Shown: positions 22,083-56,604 of the stretch, piece after piece
Layout: each line of letters begins with the position of its first letter
How positions within the stretch are numbered: position 1 is the first letter of the stretch
DNA from: an uncultured Pelagibacteraceae bacterium
GTDB taxonomy: Bacteria; Pseudomonadota; Alphaproteobacteria; Pelagibacterales; Pelagibacteraceae
Assembly (NCBI GenBank): GCA_902594605.1
Contig: CACJMR010000003.1
Coordinates: 1-64,000, forward strand
Direction: 5' to 3'
Length of the DNA stretch: 64,000 nucleotides
Made by a program: the position numbers and the translations under genes
The notes under the pieces: model-generated
Seen by the model: the letters and a program-made list of their open reading frames with translations, nothing else
Databases searched by the model: none
What the model was told of the DNA's origin: nothing

Positions 22083-22451
22083 TCAATATTTATTTCGCCA
22101 ATAGTACTCTTTACTTCTTATTGTATCGCATTCAGAACAATTACTTCTTTTTTTATTAGTCGAGCCATATTTATCATTTGGAAAAACATCCAATGATTTA
22201 AATTTTTTACAAATTGAGCATTGCAATTTACCATTTTTATATTTTTTTTGATTACCAATATTTTTGAATACCAAACCTTGTCTTTCAGTTTCTGACCTTG
22301 TTAATATTTTGGTTTTGTTATTTTTTCCTTCTCCTCTAAAATCTTTTTTAGTCCAGGTTGGATGTTGGTTAATTATTTTTTGAATTTCCTCGTCACTTCT
22401 AGTAATCCATTGATTAGAGCCCTTTGGATTTCTATTAAAATTTTTAACCAT
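22083..22451 (-). CDS. small protein with two CxxC zinc-binding pairs, co-oriented with the methyltransferase
   Basis: LQCSICKKFKSLDVFPNDK...RSNCSECDTIRSKEYYW; 5-nt gap from the MTase stop. Confidence 0.65.
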   Translation of the reverse strand: MVKNFNRNPKGSNQWITRSDEEIQKIINQHPTWTKKDFRGEGKNNKTKILTRSETERQGLVFKNIGNQKKYKNGKLQCSICKKFKSLDVFPNDKYGSTNKKRSNCSECDTIRSKEYYWRNKY

Positions 22452-22456
22452 AAATT

Positions 22457-23665
22457 TTAATCATTAAAATTAAATTTCATTTGTGGTCCTAATTCTTCTT
22501 TTCCTGTGAAGTATAAATCTTTACCTTTTGCTTTTATCATCCAGTCATGATGATGTGAGATTTGTTTTTTATTTTTTTTTAGGGCCATTTTGACTGCTTT
22601 CATTATTTTTTCAGCTCCTAATACAGGTACAGCCATTCCAATTTGTCTTCTAATAGATTCTTTTCCCCCTACAAAATTGTAGGTGAATGGAAATGTTTGT
22701 AAAGTTGCTCGTTCTCTATTTGTCAAAGCTCTATTTTCTTTATAATGGTATACATGTGTCCCACCACCTCCACTTCCAGTTATAGTGTAGGCAGGTTTTG
22801 AGCTGTCTAACCTTTTATAGATATGGCTCATTCTTGCCTTTTTAACTCCAGGAAGACCGTCTTCATCATCACCTAAATCCCATACATTTTTACCTTCAGC
22901 TGTTTTTTTTAGTCTTCTTATAACTCTCTCATCATGTTTAGTTTTTTCCGTATGTTCCACTCCATCAGGAATTTCTTCTAAAGCTTCTTTACATGTTTTG
23001 AAAGGACCTTTGTTTTTTTCAGGTTTTTCGAAGTTGATTTTATTTTTTCTAAAAAAGTCTTCTCTAAAACCAACAAGTATTATCCTATGTCTTGATTGTG
23101 GAACACCATATTCCTCAAATTTATAGTTATCTGCATATATTCTATATCCATGTTTAGAGCAATTAGCTAAATCACCCATTATTTTTTTAAAATTTTGATA
23201 ATTTTGGTTTTGGAGTTTTTCTTTATCAAAAACATCTTTGACTAATACTTGCTCTGATGAATTAAATTTAAGTTTTTTACTTAGAGAGGTAACATTTTCA
23301 GCAACAAAAAATTCCGGCTCAAAAAAGTTTAGAACTTTGCAAGCATACTTGTAAAGTCCTCCAAATTTACCTTCCATTTTTTCTTTTTTGCCAACTAAAC
23401 TAAAATCATTGCAGGGAAATCCAAATAGAAGACCATCAATTTTTCCAAAATCTTTTTTTATTTTTTTTAAATTCGATAGTCTTGAAAAATCTTCTATATT
23501 TTTATTAAAAGCTTCACACTTTTGATTTTTTTCAAAGGTTTTGCAGGAGTCTTCATGGTTATCTACGCCCCAAATATGCTCAAATCCAGCATTTTTTGCT
23601 CCTTCAGCAAAACCTCCGGCACCACAAAATAACTCTGCTAATTTTTTTTTATTCTCTCTTGACAT
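22457..23665 (-). CDS. DNA (cytosine-5) methyltransferase (likely ATG start at 23665)
   Basis: ELFCGAGGFAEGAKNAGF, GFPCNDFS (catalytic PC motif), FVAENVTSL (ENV), QSRHRIILVGF, NRERATLQTFP. Confidence 0.93.
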   Translation of the reverse strand: MSRENKKKLAELFCGAGGFAEGAKNAGFEHIWGVDNHEDSCKTFEKNQKCEAFNKNIEDFSRLSNLKKIKKDFGKIDGLLFGFPCNDFSLVGKKEKMEGKFGGLYKYACKVLNFFEPEFFVAENVTSLSKKLKFNSSEQVLVKDVFDKEKLQNQNYQNFKKIMGDLANCSKHGYRIYADNYKFEEYGVPQSRHRIILVGFREDFFRKNKINFEKPEKNKGPFKTCKEALEEIPDGVEHTEKTKHDERVIRRLKKTAEGKNVWDLGDDEDGLPGVKKARMSHIYKRLDSSKPAYTITGSGGGGTHVYHYKENRALTNRERATLQTFPFTYNFVGGKESIRRQIGMAVPVLGAEKIMKAVKMALKKNKKQISHHHDWMIKAKGKDLYFTGKEELGPQMKFNFND

Positions 23666-23704
23666 ACTCACAGAAGATATATATATTACCTGTGAGTATG
23701 TCAA
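23659..23704. promoter_or_regulatory. perfect 15-bp inverted repeat with two opposing overlapping sigma70-like promoters
   Basis: TTGACATACTCACAG-N16-CTGTGAGTATGTCAA; + strand TTGACA-17 nt-TATATT; - strand TTGACA-17 nt-TATATC. Confidence 0.8.
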
Positions 23705-23728
23705 ATGGATATTTTATAGGGAAAAATT

Positions 23729-24016
23729 ATGGTTAAACCCAAAAAAACAAGAACTAGTCATTTAAGTGCTGCAGAAAAATTTGAGTATTATTTTAATCTC
23801 AGAATGAGATTGCTTAAAAGCGCCTTAAGAGGAGTAGGAAATTTATCAAATAGAAATGTTTATGAGATTCCTGATGGAGCAAAAAAGATAATCGAAAGTC
23901 AATTGAAGGAATGGAGCAAAGAGTATGTTTTTGATAAATGGAATAAAAGTTCAAAAAAAATAGAAACTTTAAGAAAACCAGAAAGTCTTTACGACCAGTA
24001 TTTTAAGAAAAAATGA
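23729..24016 (+). CDS. hypothetical protein, first gene of the rightward island operon
   Basis: 95 aa ORF starting 24 bp right of the palindrome. Confidence 0.65.
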   Translation: MVKPKKTRTSHLSAAEKFEYYFNLRMRLLKSALRGVGNLSNRNVYEIPDGAKKIIESQLKEWSKEYVFDKWNKSSKKIETLRKPESLYDQYFKKK

Positions 24017-24027
24017 ATTATGGAATT

Positions 24028-24232
24028 GATGCACGTTAAAAAGAAGAGGTTGTCATACACGGTGAGCAACAACATCGATAGAATACAAACAATACCTCTC
24101 GCCAGAGTGCATCCTGGTTTTGTCTTATGTTTGTATTCAAAAGTTGCAATTAGCAAGTTGACTATGCAAATTTTAATGCGTGCAAAGCTACATCTTTCTT
24201 TCTTTCTGTGTAGCTTGTACGTGTTAAAAAAC
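24028..24232 (+). ncRNA. candidate structured RNA element in the restriction island
   Basis: Long stem TTTTAATGCGTGC-A-AAGCTACA / TGTAGCTT-GTACGTGTTAAAA (24171-24230) plus GAATACAAACA/TGTTTGTATTC (24081-24091 / 24128-24138) and AGAGGT/ACCTCT; competing pairings. Manual folding only. Confidence 0.4.
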
Positions 24233-24250
24233 AAACAAATAGGAGTTTGA

Positions 24251-24535
24251 TTGAAGAAAGATTATTTTCATTCTTGTTTACAGGATAGATTGCAGTACGT
24301 CCAAGAATTTGCAAGGGAATATACAATATACTTACAAAGTGTTGAGTTTACAAAAAAAACTGACTCAGAATTTTACAAAAATAATAGAATATTGTTTTTA
24401 CTAAACAAAATCCTAAATTTACCAACTAATACATTAAAATTCTTAAAAGTTTTAAAAAGCAGATTCATTTTAAAAAAATGTTTAAATGAAATTGAAGTAA
24501 TAAAAAAAGAGTTAAAAAATTATGAGATGGATTAG
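24251..24535 (+). CDS. hypothetical protein (TTG start)
   Basis: 94 aa ORF overlapping the start of the ATPase gene. Confidence 0.55.
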   Translation: MKKDYFHSCLQDRLQYVQEFAREYTIYLQSVEFTKKTDSEFYKNNRILFLLNKILNLPTNTLKFLKVLKSRFILKKCLNEIEVIKKELKNYEMD

Positions 24536-26690
24536 AAGAGAACAAGCTCAAGATGTAACAAGTCAAAAATTAGAGGTTGATTTTCACTTTAAAGATGATG
24601 ACAATCTATCTGTAACAGATGAGGGGGGTCAAAATTCAAGAGATGGAGCAGTAAATGAACTAATACAAAATTCAATGGATAATTCTCTTTCTCCAGTTGA
24701 CCAAGAAAATATACCAATTATCAAAATTAAAAGGAAAAAAATTAATAAAGGAAAATTTAAAAGTTTAATTACGGATCGATTTGAAGAATGGTTTTTAGAC
24801 AGTAAACAAGTTACTGATGCTTATTTTTTAAAGAATTATTTTGAGAAAAATGAAGATATTGAAGTTCTTCTTTTTGAAGATTTCAATACGACTGGTATTA
24901 AAGGTGGACCTATTCCACATAATATCAAGATGCCTGATCAAACAAGAAATGATTACTATGCTTTTATTTGGGATGTTGGTTCAAAAATGGATAAGGGAGA
25001 TGATAAAGGTGGCAGCGTCGGTATTGGAAGACTTACTTTTGGTCTTTCCTCTAAAATAAATACTTTTTTTGTTTATACAAAACAACAGTTTAAAGATTAT
25101 AATAATACATTCTTCACAGGACTTGCTAATTTTGGACAAAGTGAAACTAATCCATATTTAGATCCAATAGCAAGATTTGGTATCGAGTATGGAGAAAATA
25201 AAATTCCACATCCAATAAGTGCTGATCGTGATCTTGAAATAATAAGACAAATTTTTCAATTAGATAGAAAAAAAGATGAACCAGGGACATCAATGATTGT
25301 TCCTTTCCCGATTGATGATTTAACAAATAAAAATATTATTCTTAATTTTATTAAAAGATACCGAGTTGGTTTTTATTTAAATCAATTTAAAGTTTATGTT
25401 GAGGAAGAATGTATTTCTAGGGACACTATAAAAGATATTGTAAAGAAATACATTCCATCGGAATATAGTAGCTATTGTTCTTTTTTTGATTTTATAGATC
25501 GATGTGCTGAAATACAAAAAAACAAACTTTTTCATATTCCTAAATTTGAAGAGCAAAATCCATCAGAGATAAAAAAGGATAATTTTAAAGAGGAAGATAT
25601 TACTGAAATAATAAAATCATTAGACTCACAAGAAACTATTGGAATTAGAATTAATTTAAACATTCATGAGAGAAAAAAAACGGGAAAGGAATACATAGAC
25701 GATATTAAGAAATCTTTTGTAGATGTTTATCTTCAGAAAACTGATATGGGACTTGGAAAGCAAGATACATTGAGAGGTATCATGTCAGTATCTGGCATAA
25801 GACATTTCGAAGGTAAGGATTACCACGCAATAATTGATATCCAAGATAAACCATCATCAAAGATGTTTAGAAAATTAGAAACTCCTAATCATAAGTTTTT
25901 TTCTAATCATAGTAAAGAATTTGAAAAACTTTACAGTAAATATAGAAATCAGGAGTTGTTAATTAAAAAAGCTCCAGAACGATTAAAAAACTTGTTTGAA
26001 GAAATGGAAGGTAAAATAGATAGTGATGCAGCAGATGATTTTTTTAATTTTGGGAGTGGATCAGATACAGGTAAATCTAAATCTAAAAAAGGTGGCACTG
26101 GCAGAGATACAGAATTTTCAATTCCTGATAATTTATTCTCCAATCCAAAAAGCTACGAAATAAAAAAAATAACAAAAAATAATTTAAGTGGTTTTAGAAT
26201 TTATAATCTAGACTTTAAAGAACAATGTAAAAAAACAATACAAAAAATTGAAGAATTTTTAGAAAATAACAAAGAGGAAAAAAATTTTACAAAAAAAGAA
26301 AAAAGAAGACTTGAGACGCAACTTGAAAAAAATGAAGCATGGTTAAAAGATGAAAATTTAGACGAGCTATTTCCTTCAAAAATATTTATATCAGTTGCTA
26401 AAGATTTAGAGGGTATGGATGATAAAAGTTTCAGATATCATAACAACGATCTTGATTTTGATTTATCTAATAATTTAAGACATAAAATTGAAGCTAAAAA
26501 AGAGGGAGACATTTCAGATGTTGAGTTAACCGGAAATCAAATAGACATTTCAATTACTGGACCAAACTATTCATATGAATTTTTAGCAGATATTCTTGAT
26601 ATCAAAAAAACAAGTGAGGCAAGTGATTTAAGAATTTTTGCCTATATGAAAACTTATAAAAAAGATGAAAAAAATATTAAACTACACTGA
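24522..26690 (+). CDS. GHKL-type ATPase (MORC/MutL-like) of a restriction system
   Basis: N-box-like NSRDGAVNELIQNSMDN, G1-like LLFEDFNTTGIKGG, G2-like GGSVGIGRLTFGLSS; linked to MTase and Vsr. Confidence 0.8.
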   Translation: MRWIRREQAQDVTSQKLEVDFHFKDDDNLSVTDEGGQNSRDGAVNELIQNSMDNSLSPVDQENIPIIKIKRKKINKGKFKSLITDRFEEWFLDSKQVTDAYFLKNYFEKNEDIEVLLFEDFNTTGIKGGPIPHNIKMPDQTRNDYYAFIWDVGSKMDKGDDKGGSVGIGRLTFGLSSKINTFFVYTKQQFKDYNNTFFTGLANFGQSETNPYLDPIARFGIEYGENKIPHPISADRDLEIIRQIFQLDRKKDEPGTSMIVPFPIDDLTNKNIILNFIKRYRVGFYLNQFKVYVEEECISRDTIKDIVKKYIPSEYSSYCSFFDFIDRCAEIQKNKLFHIPKFEEQNPSEIKKDNFKEEDITEIIKSLDSQETIGIRINLNIHERKKTGKEYIDDIKKSFVDVYLQKTDMGLGKQDTLRGIMSVSGIRHFEGKDYHAIIDIQDKPSSKMFRKLETPNHKFFSNHSKEFEKLYSKYRNQELLIKKAPERLKNLFEEMEGKIDSDAADDFFNFGSGSDTGKSKSKKGGTGRDTEFSIPDNLFSNPKSYEIKKITKNNLSGFRIYNLDFKEQCKKTIQKIEEFLENNKEEKNFTKKEKRRLETQLEKNEAWLKDENLDELFPSKIFISVAKDLEGMDDKSFRYHNNDLDFDLSNNLRHKIEAKKEGDISDVELTGNQIDISITGPNYSYEFLADILDIKKTSEASDLRIFAYMKTYKKDEKNIKLH

Positions 26691-27462
26691 TAGAAAAGAC
26701 TCAATTATTATAAGTGGAGATAATCCTGAGGTCAAAATTAATATAATTGAGGAAGATGGTGAAACTTTTTTTGAACCAGAAATAAAATTTGAAGAAAATA
26801 AATTTCCTAGTGATGGTGAAATTTTTATTCAACCATATACCGTTCATGGATATGTTGGAAAACCAGTATATTATGGAAATGTAAAAGAACCATTAAATAT
26901 AAAAACTTTAGAGCCTTATGCATCAAAAGATGAATTATACTTTCGAGTAAAAATTGTTCAAAAACAAATTGATCCAACAATAAAAATTAAAAAAGTCATA
27001 AGTTTTAAAGATAAAATTAGATCTGCTGGAAGTAAAAATTTGATTCAATTTGGTGAGGCAGAAATAGAATCTATTTTTGAAATAAGAATGAAACCAAATT
27101 CAATTCCTATCGTGATGTTTAAAAAGGGATTGGGTTTAAAATCAGATTTAAAATCATCCAATTATCTTAAGGGAATAATTTTTACTGGAAGTGTTAGAGA
27201 AATTTTGATGAGATATATTTTTGACGCTGATACCTTTTTAGAATGTGATGTAAGAGAAGATTATGTAAAACATTTTAAGATGCTTACCAAAGAACCCTTC
27301 CCAAAAAAAGATGATGAAAATGATGATATATTTAATTGGATAGATTTAGCTCTAAGAAGATATTCAAATTATTATGTTAAAAAAAATAAAAATTTACTCA
27401 ATATAATGCCTACTAGCGATATTAAGATCGAGGATAAAATTACGTTCCCCAATAAATCATGA
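26665..27462 (+). CDS. hypothetical island protein, overlaps the ATPase 3' end
   Basis: 265 aa ORF, overlapping start/stop with neighbours implies an operon. Confidence 0.7.
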   Translation: MKKILNYTDRKDSIIISGDNPEVKINIIEEDGETFFEPEIKFEENKFPSDGEIFIQPYTVHGYVGKPVYYGNVKEPLNIKTLEPYASKDELYFRVKIVQKQIDPTIKIKKVISFKDKIRSAGSKNLIQFGEAEIESIFEIRMKPNSIPIVMFKKGLGLKSDLKSSNYLKGIIFTGSVREILMRYIFDADTFLECDVREDYVKHFKMLTKEPFPKKDDENDDIFNWIDLALRRYSNYYVKKNKNLLNIMPTSDIKIEDKITFPNKS

Positions 27463-28556
27463 ATATAAAAAAGTTTAACACAAAAGGAAATGAACAATAT
27501 AAGATTTTATTACAGTCTGTAATTTCAAAAGATATTGTAACCAATTCAGATTATAAAAGTTTTGACGATCTTGCCAGAAACAGGAATTACACCGAGGAGC
27601 TTGCATGTACAAAAAGTATTGAGCTAAAAGATTTTGAAACCAGATATGAATTAGGTAAATATTTAAATGATGCTCTATCTGACTGTAAGCATTCAGAAAT
27701 AGAAAATAATGAAAAAATGTGGAATTGGATTTCTTGTTTTTATATGAGAAAAATTTTGAGTGCAAAAGGTGGAAGAGATATAGCAAGATTTCAATTTACA
27801 AGGGCAAGAGAAGGGAGAAGAAATTTAATTAGAACTCCATGGATGCTTTATAATATAAACGGAGAAAACTCTAAGTTTGCTTTACCATCAGCTTTACATA
27901 TTCATTCTAACGAATGTGAAACTTATTCATCTAGACCTGAACTTTATAGAAATGCAGTTGTAGGAAATTTATGTATGGAATTATATTGGGATAAAAAAAA
28001 TAATAGAGTTTTTGCAAATGCTACTGACCATAGAAAGCAGGGACGTGCAGGTGTATTATACCCAAGACTGTACAAAAAAATTTTAGAGTTATCAAAACTC
28101 TATGATTTATGGTCAATTGATATGGAGACTTTAAGGGAACTTGTTGGTGACGAATTTGATAGTATTAAAAAAGAGGCTGCTAACAAACAAGATACTAAAT
28201 CAAAAAATCCGGTTTGGAAAAGAAATGAACAAATTGTAGTTTTAAAACACTATTTTGAGTCTGATGATCCAATAAAGCTCTCTAAAAATAAACAGGAAAT
28301 TAAAAAAATAAGTTTATTACTTAAATCTTTAGATGAAAATAAAAAAATTGAAACACAGAGTAATTTCAGAAGTGAAGAGGGTGTTAGAAGAAAAATTTTA
28401 AATTTTTGTTCTATTGATCCGAGAGTTGATGACGATGATGGCTTAGATCATTATTCAAAAGGAGACGAAAAAATTTTTATGGAATTTTATAATAATGATA
28501 AAAAATTAAATGAAATTAAAACTATTTACGATGTCATTATTAAAAATGATACTTAA
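27459..28556 (+). CDS. uncharacterised restriction-island protein (tentatively DUF6339-like)
   Basis: NEKMWNWISCFYMRKIL...RTPWMLY...ELYRNAVVGNLCMELYWD; genomic context. Family name recalled, not searched. Confidence 0.55.
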   Translation: MNIKKFNTKGNEQYKILLQSVISKDIVTNSDYKSFDDLARNRNYTEELACTKSIELKDFETRYELGKYLNDALSDCKHSEIENNEKMWNWISCFYMRKILSAKGGRDIARFQFTRAREGRRNLIRTPWMLYNINGENSKFALPSALHIHSNECETYSSRPELYRNAVVGNLCMELYWDKKNNRVFANATDHRKQGRAGVLYPRLYKKILELSKLYDLWSIDMETLRELVGDEFDSIKKEAANKQDTKSKNPVWKRNEQIVVLKHYFESDDPIKLSKNKQEIKKISLLLKSLDENKKIETQSNFRSEEGVRRKILNFCSIDPRVDDDDGLDHYSKGDEKIFMEFYNNDKKLNEIKTIYDVIIKNDT

Positions 28557-28559
28557 TAA

Positions 28560-28937
28560 ATGAAAAAAAAAACTATATCTAAAAATACTAAACCAGAAAA
28601 ATTAATAAGATCTAAACTATATGAGAACGGATACAGATTTAGAATTCATGTAAAAAAACTTCCTGGTAAACCAGATATAGTTCTTCATAAACATAAAACA
28701 ATTTTAAATGTTCACGGTTGCTATTGGCATTATCATGGCTGTGTTCATAGCAATGTACCAAAAACTAAAACTCAATATTGGATAGAAAGATTGGAGCTTA
28801 ATAAGAAAAGAGACTTTTTGAATAAAAGTAAATTAATTAAATTAGGCTGGAAAGTAATTGATGTATGGGAGTGTACTTTAAAAAGAAAGAATATCGATAA
28901 AACTTTTAACACTCTGGAACGTCTAATCATTGCCTAA
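28560..28937 (+). CDS. vsr: very-short-patch-repair (Vsr) type endonuclease
   Basis: NTKPEKLIRSKLYENGYRFRIHVKKLPGKPDIVLHKHKTILNVHGCYWHYHGC...WKVIDVWECTL. Confidence 0.93.
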   Translation: MKKKTISKNTKPEKLIRSKLYENGYRFRIHVKKLPGKPDIVLHKHKTILNVHGCYWHYHGCVHSNVPKTKTQYWIERLELNKKRDFLNKSKLIKLGWKVIDVWECTLKRKNIDKTFNTLERLIIA

Positions 28938-29220
28938 AGATATTTACCAAATCATGGATAAAAGTTACTTAATGGAATTGAAACTATCTGAACTTAAAAC
29001 AGAAAATCAAAAAGAAGTTTTCTTTAGGTATTTATCTATAGCTGAGCATTATATTTCAACTGAAAATGAAAAAGAGGCTAAAGATATTCTTAAAAATTTA
29101 GGTTTTGATAAAAAAACAATTAACTCTTTTATAAAAACAGTTCAAAATCATGTTGCGTCGGAATTTTCTGATATGAAAGAAATTATGATGGGAAAGGTTC
29201 CAAAAAGGTTACTCAATTAA
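28930..29220 (+). CDS. hypothetical protein
   Basis: 96 aa ORF, coupled to neighbours. Confidence 0.6.
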   Translation: MPKDIYQIMDKSYLMELKLSELKTENQKEVFFRYLSIAEHYISTENEKEAKDILKNLGFDKKTINSFIKTVQNHVASEFSDMKEIMMGKVPKRLLN

Positions 29221-56361: not shown

Positions 56362-56495
56362 GTATTTTTGCCTGAGAGCTTTACTCCTTCGGCGGAAATC
56401 AATCTCTTTCCAGAGTGTTATGCTTTAATCGGTCCTTTTGCCTGAGAGTTTCCGGGGTGGTTGCTCCTTCGGCGCTATAAATAGTCTCTCCCGAT
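56362..56495 (-). promoter_or_regulatory. tandem glycine riboswitch upstream of malate synthase
   Basis: Reverse strand: ATCGGGAGAGAC...GCGCCGAAGGAGCAA...GGAAACTCTCAGGCAAAAGGACCGAT, then CTCTGGAAAGAG...CGCCGAAGGAGTAAA...GCTCTCAGGCAAAAATACAG. Confidence 0.95.
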
Positions 56496-56604
56496 AATGA
56501 ATTTGTATCTGTTAAATGATTTAAGTCAATTAATAAGAATTACACCTTATTTAATATCATTTTATTGCCTTTTTTGTATTTTAACCATCCGCTATAAATA
56601 AAAC

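What the first reader, a model, noticed from the sequence alone, without database searches (positions are those of the whole stretch)
24028..24232. Candidate structured, switch-like RNA embedded in the defence operon
A roughly 230-nt gap between ORFs folds by eye into: GAATACAAACA/TGTTTGTATTC (11 bp); a roughly 21-bp stem TTTTAATGCGTGC-A-AAGCTACA // TGTAGCTT-GTACGTGTTAAAA with a TCTTTCTTTCTTTCTG loop; AGAGGT/ACCTCT; and GATGCAC (24028-24034) complementary to GTGCATC (24107-24113) in another loop (possible pseudoknot). The 5' segment GCACGTTAAAA and 3' segment GTACGTGTTAAAA are near direct repeats, and both can pair with the middle segment TTTTAATGCGTGC, giving mutually exclusive folds. Both strands are open here, but the encoded peptides look unlike normal proteins.
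Basis: partly seen in the sequence, partly recalled or inferred. Interest (0 to 1): 0.6.

Follow-up and report, generated by a model that had tools for sequence, protein, structure and literature searches.

The report
Pseudoknotted RNA inside SAR11 defence operon
A 209-base stretch inside a restriction-type defence operon of the ocean bacterium SAR11 encodes a knotted, conserved RNA of a class not in Rfam; the RNA is kept almost unchanged while the defence genes behind it are swapped for very different ones, which suggests it is a shared control element.

Summary
Window 24023-24231 lies in a SAR11 (Pelagibacteraceae) C5-methylase/GHKL-type ATPase/Vsr operon. I found 13 homologues: 10 close ones (82-97% identical) and 3 remote ones in another genus of the family (about 65%, core only). 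All 14 sit at the same place in the same kind of operon. In the 14-sequence alignment all 406 core cells pair, 9 pairs change on both sides, and the PK1 and P2/P4 pseudoknots each show compensatory changes. Codon positions vary evenly (18:22:22, against 21:17:58 in the adjacent gene), and dS is 0.17 against 0.85. So the sequence evolves as RNA, not protein. The proposed mutually exclusive 'switch' fold is broken in 7 of 11 and is not supported. No Rfam family matches. The RNA stays nearly constant while downstream ATPases differ (18-79% identity). Best reading: a cis-acting pseudoknot, overlapping a leader frame, that gates translation of exchangeable effector genes. The structure is shown; the mechanism is inferred.

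The parts
23659..23687 (+). promoter-like site (TTGACA-17-TATATT) in the gap between methylase and first operon gene
   Evidence: consensus scan, 11 of 12 matches; equally strong sites were not found upstream of all homologues
23729..24016 (+). 95-aa ORF (fam1), first gene of the operon
   Evidence: a fam1 relative precedes the RNA in 13 of 14 loci; no fam1 relative was detected in G341, although it has the other genes
24020..24250 (+). open frame of 76 codons overlapping the whole RNA; its stop abuts the next start codon
   Evidence: open in all 11 close relatives and in the 3 remote ones; neutral simulation keeps it open in 0.9-3.3% of runs
24023..24231 (+). whole conserved RNA element (209 nt) as found in close relatives
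   Evidence: no gaps in 11 sequences; sharp conservation edges; CM R1 built
24023..24138 (+). pseudoknotted core shared with the remote homologues in another genus
24028..24034 (+). PK1 5' strand GAUGCAC, contains an AUG
   Evidence: pairs 24107-24113; 100% paired in 14, C-G to A-U in 3
24107..24113 (+). PK1 3' strand GUGCAUC, in the loop of P5
24045..24050 (+). P2 5' strand AGAGGU
   Evidence: two pairs with double changes in remote homologues
24094..24099 (+). P2 3' strand ACCUCU
24060..24077 (+). P3 hairpin CGGUG/CAUCG
   Evidence: one pair G-C to A-U in 4 sequences
24081..24091 (+). P4 5' strand (conserved part 24081-24086)
   Evidence: 3 pairs with double changes among close relatives, P=0.001 against tree simulation; 4 pairs with remote ones
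24128..24138 (+). P4 3' strand (conserved part 24133-24138)
24101..24118 (+). P5 hairpin GCCAG/CUGGU
   Evidence: G-C to U-A or U-G in remote homologues; terminator-like in the window because of a following U run, but no U run in the remote homologues
24141..24159 (+). P6 weak hairpin, close relatives only
   Evidence: 95.5% of cells paired, no double change
24171..24229 (+). P7 long hairpin (21 conserved pairs, UUUCUUUCUUUCU loop), close relatives only
   Evidence: 99.1% of cells paired, null mean 93.2%, P=0.0055
24251..24535 (+). 94-aa ORF (fam7); ordinary protein-coding control for the rate tests
24522..26690 (+). 722-aa ATPase with GHKL-like motifs (fam2)
   Evidence: PADLOC PDC-M33A E 1.6e-18; motifs read from alignment A8; no Pfam match
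26665..27462 (+). 265-aa operon protein (fam4)
27459..28556 (+). 365-aa operon protein (fam5), weak HNH match
   Evidence: PADLOC HNH E 0.0013
28560..28937 (+). Vsr-type endonuclease
   Evidence: Pfam Vsr E 6.9e-21
22457..23704 (-). C5-cytosine DNA methylase, divergent from the operon
   Evidence: Pfam PF00145 E 9.8e-58

Best explanation
Window 24023-24231 is a structured RNA domain of the operon mRNA (shown by comparative evidence). Its core is a double pseudoknot: the 5' end pairs with the loop of hairpin P5 (PK1), and P2 interlocks with P4, with hairpins P3 and P5 in the loops. Close relatives add a 3' hairpin, P7, just before the next ribosome-binding site. I infer that it acts in cis and gates expression of the effector genes behind it. 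An AUG lies in PK1, and a peptide-indifferent leader frame runs through the domain and stops at or near the next start codon, so ribosomes that enter the frame would unfold the domain and hand over to the next gene, while the folded domain would keep effector translation low. Since the RNA stays constant while ATPase types are swapped, it probably reads a host-side signal (ribosome, elongation factor or ligand) rather than the ATPase itself.
For: RNA: 406/406 core cells pair in 14 sequences, 9 pairs with double changes. PK1 and P2 were not in the covariance model that made this alignment, so they test it independently. In the 11 close relatives 99.2% of cells pair, null mean 93.1%, 0 of 2000 simulations. 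Rates: variable sites by codon position 18:22:22 in the element, 21:17:58 in adjacent fam7; mean dS 0.17 against 0.85; omega=1 not rejected for the element (lnL -770.4 vs -771.0), strongly rejected for fam7 (-970.9 vs -1039.6). Cis: always on the operon strand, directly before fam7 or the ATPase, in 14/14 loci. Leader frame: open in 14/14, neutral probability 0.009-0.033; G-AUG-CA invariant in all 14; stops at or near the next start codon. RNA constant while ATPases share 18-79% identity. Precedent for an aptamer interplaying with a translated upstream ORF: PMC11260477.
Against: No transcript, probing or expression data. The open frame could be partly chance (probability up to 3% in close relatives, about 6% in the remote genus by base composition). 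Indels between the two genera shift part of the frame. fam7 stands between RNA and ATPase in 9 of 11 close relatives, but before the RNA in G036, G223 and G341, so no single gene is always the immediate target. No ligand, binding protein or alternative fold was found. One related system (G208) lacks the RNA altogether.
Confidence: 0.42

Rival explanations
1. A processive-antitermination element: the RNA contacts the host RNA polymerase/Nus machinery from inside the operon and lets it read through a long foreign operon, as the EAR (epsC) element does in Bacillales.
For: EAR is also pseudoknotted, lies among genes whose content varies between species, and has antitermination activity (PMC2864571). 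It would explain an invariant RNA with exchangeable downstream genes, the changing order relative to fam7, and restriction to one bacterial family.
Against: No sequence match to Rfam epsC or any other family. It does not need the open frame. No terminators were mapped in the operon.
Confidence: 0.2
2. A trans-acting RNA: a processed RNA that binds an operon protein, as a scaffold, guide or RNA antitoxin of the defence complex.
For: Complex fold; strict co-occurrence with the operon (14/14); invariant unpaired stretches; P7 is a long helix that could be an RNase III site. RNA antitoxins upstream of defence genes are known (AbiF/RCd22, PMC12373285).
Against: The RNA is nearly constant while the ATPases diverge to 18-28% identity. 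No tandem repeats. No promoter of its own stands out. One related operon has no such RNA (G208).
Confidence: 0.2
3. A small-protein gene (76-83 aa) whose message happens to be strongly constrained.
For: Frame open in 14 of 14 with tight gene spacing; no indels in 209 columns of 11 sequences; neutral probability 0.009-0.033.
Against: Substitutions even over codon positions, omega not different from 1, synonymous rate a fifth of the neighbour's. Remote homologues keep helices by compensatory change while the peptide changes and part of the frame shifts. No family match for the peptide.
Confidence: 0.12
4. A DNA-level recombination anchor: conserved only because cassettes are exchanged across it.
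For: Flanking genes differ sharply between loci that share the element.
Against: Does not predict compensatory base changes, G-U pairs kept on one strand, or helix conservation above tree simulations.
Confidence: 0.03

Closest known systems
EAR / epsC element (Rfam RF01735)
   Same: pseudoknotted RNA in a long operon whose gene content varies between species
   Different: no sequence match; different bacteria; antitermination not tested here
Translated leaders in riboswitch regions (M. tuberculosis metE/ppe2 uORFs, PMC11260477)
   Same: structured leader with a short open frame leading into the next gene
   Different: no ligand known; different fold; operon-internal
Group I intron core
   Same: order of strands of P2, P3, P4 and P5 here equals P3, P4-P6, P7, P8 of group I introns, and P2/P4 interlock in the same way
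   Different: core only about 116 nt; no Rfam match; the P7-equivalent varies freely; no host gene interrupted; extra pairing of the 5' end with the P5 loop. Topology only
RNA antitoxins of defence operons (type III toxin-antitoxin, AbiF/RCd22)
   Same: structured RNA beside defence genes
   Different: no tandem repeats, no toxin of those families, lies inside the operon
paraMORC restriction-modification operons (Iyer et al. 2008, PMC2292703)
   Same: the protein setting: C5 methylase, Vsr, HNH-like and GHKL-like ATPase genes; that paper lists Pelagibacter among its species
   Different: no RNA appeared in the passages I read; ATPase membership not confirmed by Pfam

Membership tests
Any Rfam 15 family | match at gathering score, or weak match on the short stretch | tested here: not met
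   no match in the element; best weak hits E 2.3 and 4.3, implausible; none for the remote homologue
EAR/epsC (RF01735) | sequence-structure match | tested here: not met
   not among matches up to E 5
EAR/epsC (RF01735) | processive antitermination activity | not testable with these tools
   needs a terminator read-through reporter
Group I intron | conserved core sequences / Rfam match | tested here: not met
   the helix equivalent to P7 varies freely
Type III toxin-antitoxin RNA | tandem repeats upstream of a ToxN-like gene | tested here: not met
   no tandem array; no such toxin among neighbours
Retron msr-msd | adjacent reverse transcriptase | tested here: not met
   no reverse transcriptase match among the ten neighbouring ORFs searched
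Riboswitch | two exclusive folds conserved in homologues | tested here: not met
Riboswitch | ligand binding | not testable with these tools
   needs in-line probing or a binding assay
Protein-coding gene | excess of synonymous over replacement change | tested here: not met
   omega=1 not rejected, codon positions even
Protein-coding gene | frame kept open | tested here: met
   14 of 14 open; neutral probability 0.009-0.033 for the 11 close relatives
paraMORC restriction-modification operon | C5 methylase and Vsr genes beside a GHKL ATPase | tested here: inconclusive
   methylase and Vsr met; ATPase has N-box-like and glycine motifs but no Pfam match

The most novel reading that the evidence does not exclude
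A new RNA class serving as a common trigger for exchangeable anti-phage effectors: leader translation through the pseudoknot reports the state of the host's gene-expression machinery, and phage take-over changes the fold and releases whichever effector cassette is plugged in behind it.
Probability: 0.15. Interest if true: 0.85.

Novelty: new variant of a known kind. Interest (0 to 1): 0.62.

Why it matters
It is a covariation-supported pseudoknotted RNA outside Rfam, found inside a restriction-type defence operon of one of the ocean's most abundant bacteria. It is kept nearly constant while the effector ATPases behind it are exchanged. If it controls them, a single RNA module regulates many different defence cassettes, which would make the question of how restriction-type effectors are held in check directly testable by mutating a few base pairs.

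Tried and rejected
Rfam, both thresholds, window and remote homologue: nothing plausible. Viral contigs: no protein relative. DNA patterns gave 3 hits that the covariance model did not confirm (L039 only 14 bits over the pattern itself), one chance hit inside a GC-rich gene (L052), and none for the combined pattern. Phage records: no match. Switch fold: rejected. Transcription terminator at P5: window shows a U run, but the remote homologues lack it. Promoter scan before the RNA in 12 loci: no consistent site. Weak covariance-model hits L047-L051 (17-18 bits) treated as chance. The 190-nt gap in the related system G208 has no such RNA. MAFFT misplaced P4 of the remote homologue by a base or two, so pair counts use the model-fitted alignment, where PK1 and P2 remain independent. 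The position-specific simulations used rates and a consensus root of my own choosing, so their P values are approximate.

Full report
Setting. The window belongs to a Pelagibacteraceae (SAR11) genome of 43 contigs (the related contig L010 is titled Pelagibacteraceae). Behind hisG lies a methylase on the minus strand (Pfam PF00145, E 9.8e-58) and, on the plus strand, a 95-aa ORF, the element, a 94-aa ORF, a 722-aa ATPase, two further proteins, a Vsr endonuclease and a 96-aa ORF. The ATPase has no Pfam match but a PADLOC candidate match (PDC-M33A, E 1.6e-18) and GHKL-like motifs in an alignment of relatives. This resembles the MORC/paraMORC restriction-modification operons described by Iyer et al. 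2008 (PMC2292703); membership is likely, not proven.

The observation. The plus strand folds better than 199 of 200 shuffles (z -2.45), the minus strand less well.

Homologues. A DNA search of 397 genomes of the family, a protein search of 397 genomes of the order, a profile search of 399 of the genus and one genome-contig scan gave 10 close homologues, aligned over 209 columns without a single gap. A covariance model made from them found a remote homologue in another genus of the family (G036, 47.2 bits, E about 1e-10), and a core model found two more (G223, G341). All 14 copies lie in the same kind of operon: methylase gene diverging, small genes before, ATPase behind. In close relatives the order is fam1-RNA-fam7-ATPase (fam7 absent in two); in the remote genus it is fam1-fam7-RNA-ATPase, except that no fam1 relative was detected in G341. 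One more related operon, G208, lacks the RNA.

RNA or protein. In the nine genomes that also hold fam7, variable sites by codon position are 18:22:22 (of 69 codons) in the element, against 21:17:58 (of 92) in fam7, and 20:13:65 (of 122) in Vsr over 11 genomes. Mean synonymous divergence is 0.17 in the element and 0.85 in fam7 for the same pairs. A codon model with omega fixed at 1 fits the element as well as a free one (lnL -771.0 and -770.4), but fits fam7 far worse (-1039.6 and -970.9). So nucleotides, not codons, are conserved. Yet the frame is open in all 11 close relatives; simulated neutral evolution from the consensus leaves it open in 0.9% of runs with random site rates and 3.3% with fitted site rates. 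It is open in the three remote ones too (about 6% by base composition). I read this as a leader frame that must stay translatable while its peptide matters little. That is an inference.

Structure. With column 1 = 24023: PK1 6-12/85-91, P2 23-28/72-77, P3 38-42/51-55, P4 59-64/111-116, P5 79-83/92-96, P6 119-125/131-137, P7 149-170/187-207. In the 11 close relatives 99.2% of 616 cells pair; simulations on the tree with site-specific rates average 93.1%, and none of 2000 reaches the observed value. With the remote homologues all 406 core cells pair, nine pairs have double changes, and sliding partners by one to three columns drops pairing to 34-48%. PK1 (C-G to A-U) and P2 (G-C to A-U, U-A to A-U) were not part of the model used to align, so their compensatory changes are independent support for the pseudoknots. 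G-U pairs are frequent (54 of 616 cells, counted by hand from the table), which places the RNA on the operon strand. P6 and P7 are absent from the remote genus. P7 is well kept in close relatives; P6 is weakly supported.

What is not supported. The exclusive 'switch' fold, in which 5' GCACGTTAAAA pairs with the P7 5' strand, is intact in 4 of 11 and broken without compensation in 7.

How it may work. The RNA is 82-97% identical across loci whose ATPases share only 18-79% identity with the window's; in the remote genus the ATPases also differ while the core is nearly identical. A binding partner that changes so much is unlikely to be what holds the RNA constant; a host component is a better candidate. 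Its place on the mRNA directly before fam7 or the ATPase, the invariant AUG inside PK1, and the leader frame ending at or near the next start favour cis-acting translational gating (confidence 0.42 for the whole statement; that it is a structured RNA I hold at about 0.95). Rivals are EAR-like antitermination, a trans-acting RNA, and a small protein with a constrained message.

Known families. No Rfam family matches. The order of strands of P2, P3, P4 and P5 equals that of P3, P4-P6, P7 and P8 in group I introns; this is topology recalled from general knowledge, not membership. A study of structured RNAs in Ca. Pelagibacter ubique (PMC2704228) was searched for restriction and hisG, with no occurrence. 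It targeted intergenic regions, and this element could be missed because it lies in an open frame.

Limits. Everything is sequence comparison. Eleven of fourteen sequences are close relatives and the three remote ones are near-identical to one another, so most compensatory changes in PK1 and P2 are one evolutionary step. No expression, probing or binding data exist here.

Noticed in passing
window 22457-29220; L030:5232-9654: The hisG-downstream site is a defence hotspot with exchangeable cassettes between a conserved methylase and a conserved Vsr gene; G732 carries three unrelated genes (347, 251 and 872 aa) between ATPase and Vsr.
   Followed up: partly
window 22083-22451 (-): 122-aa protein with cysteine pairs, behind the methylase in 3 of 13 loci; weak zinc-finger-like Pfam matches only.
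   Followed up: no
window 56420-56503 (-): Glycine riboswitch (Rfam RF00504, 65.7 bits).
   Followed up: no
window 24193-24208: The P7 loop is a UUUCUUUCUUUCU tract of unchanged length in all 11 close relatives, complementary to the purine run 24036-24047; a possible loop interaction, not tested.
   Followed up: no
window 23989-24234 (-): An 81-codon frame on the minus strand is open in 5 of 11 close relatives and has stops in the other 6, so it is not a conserved gene.
   Followed up: yes
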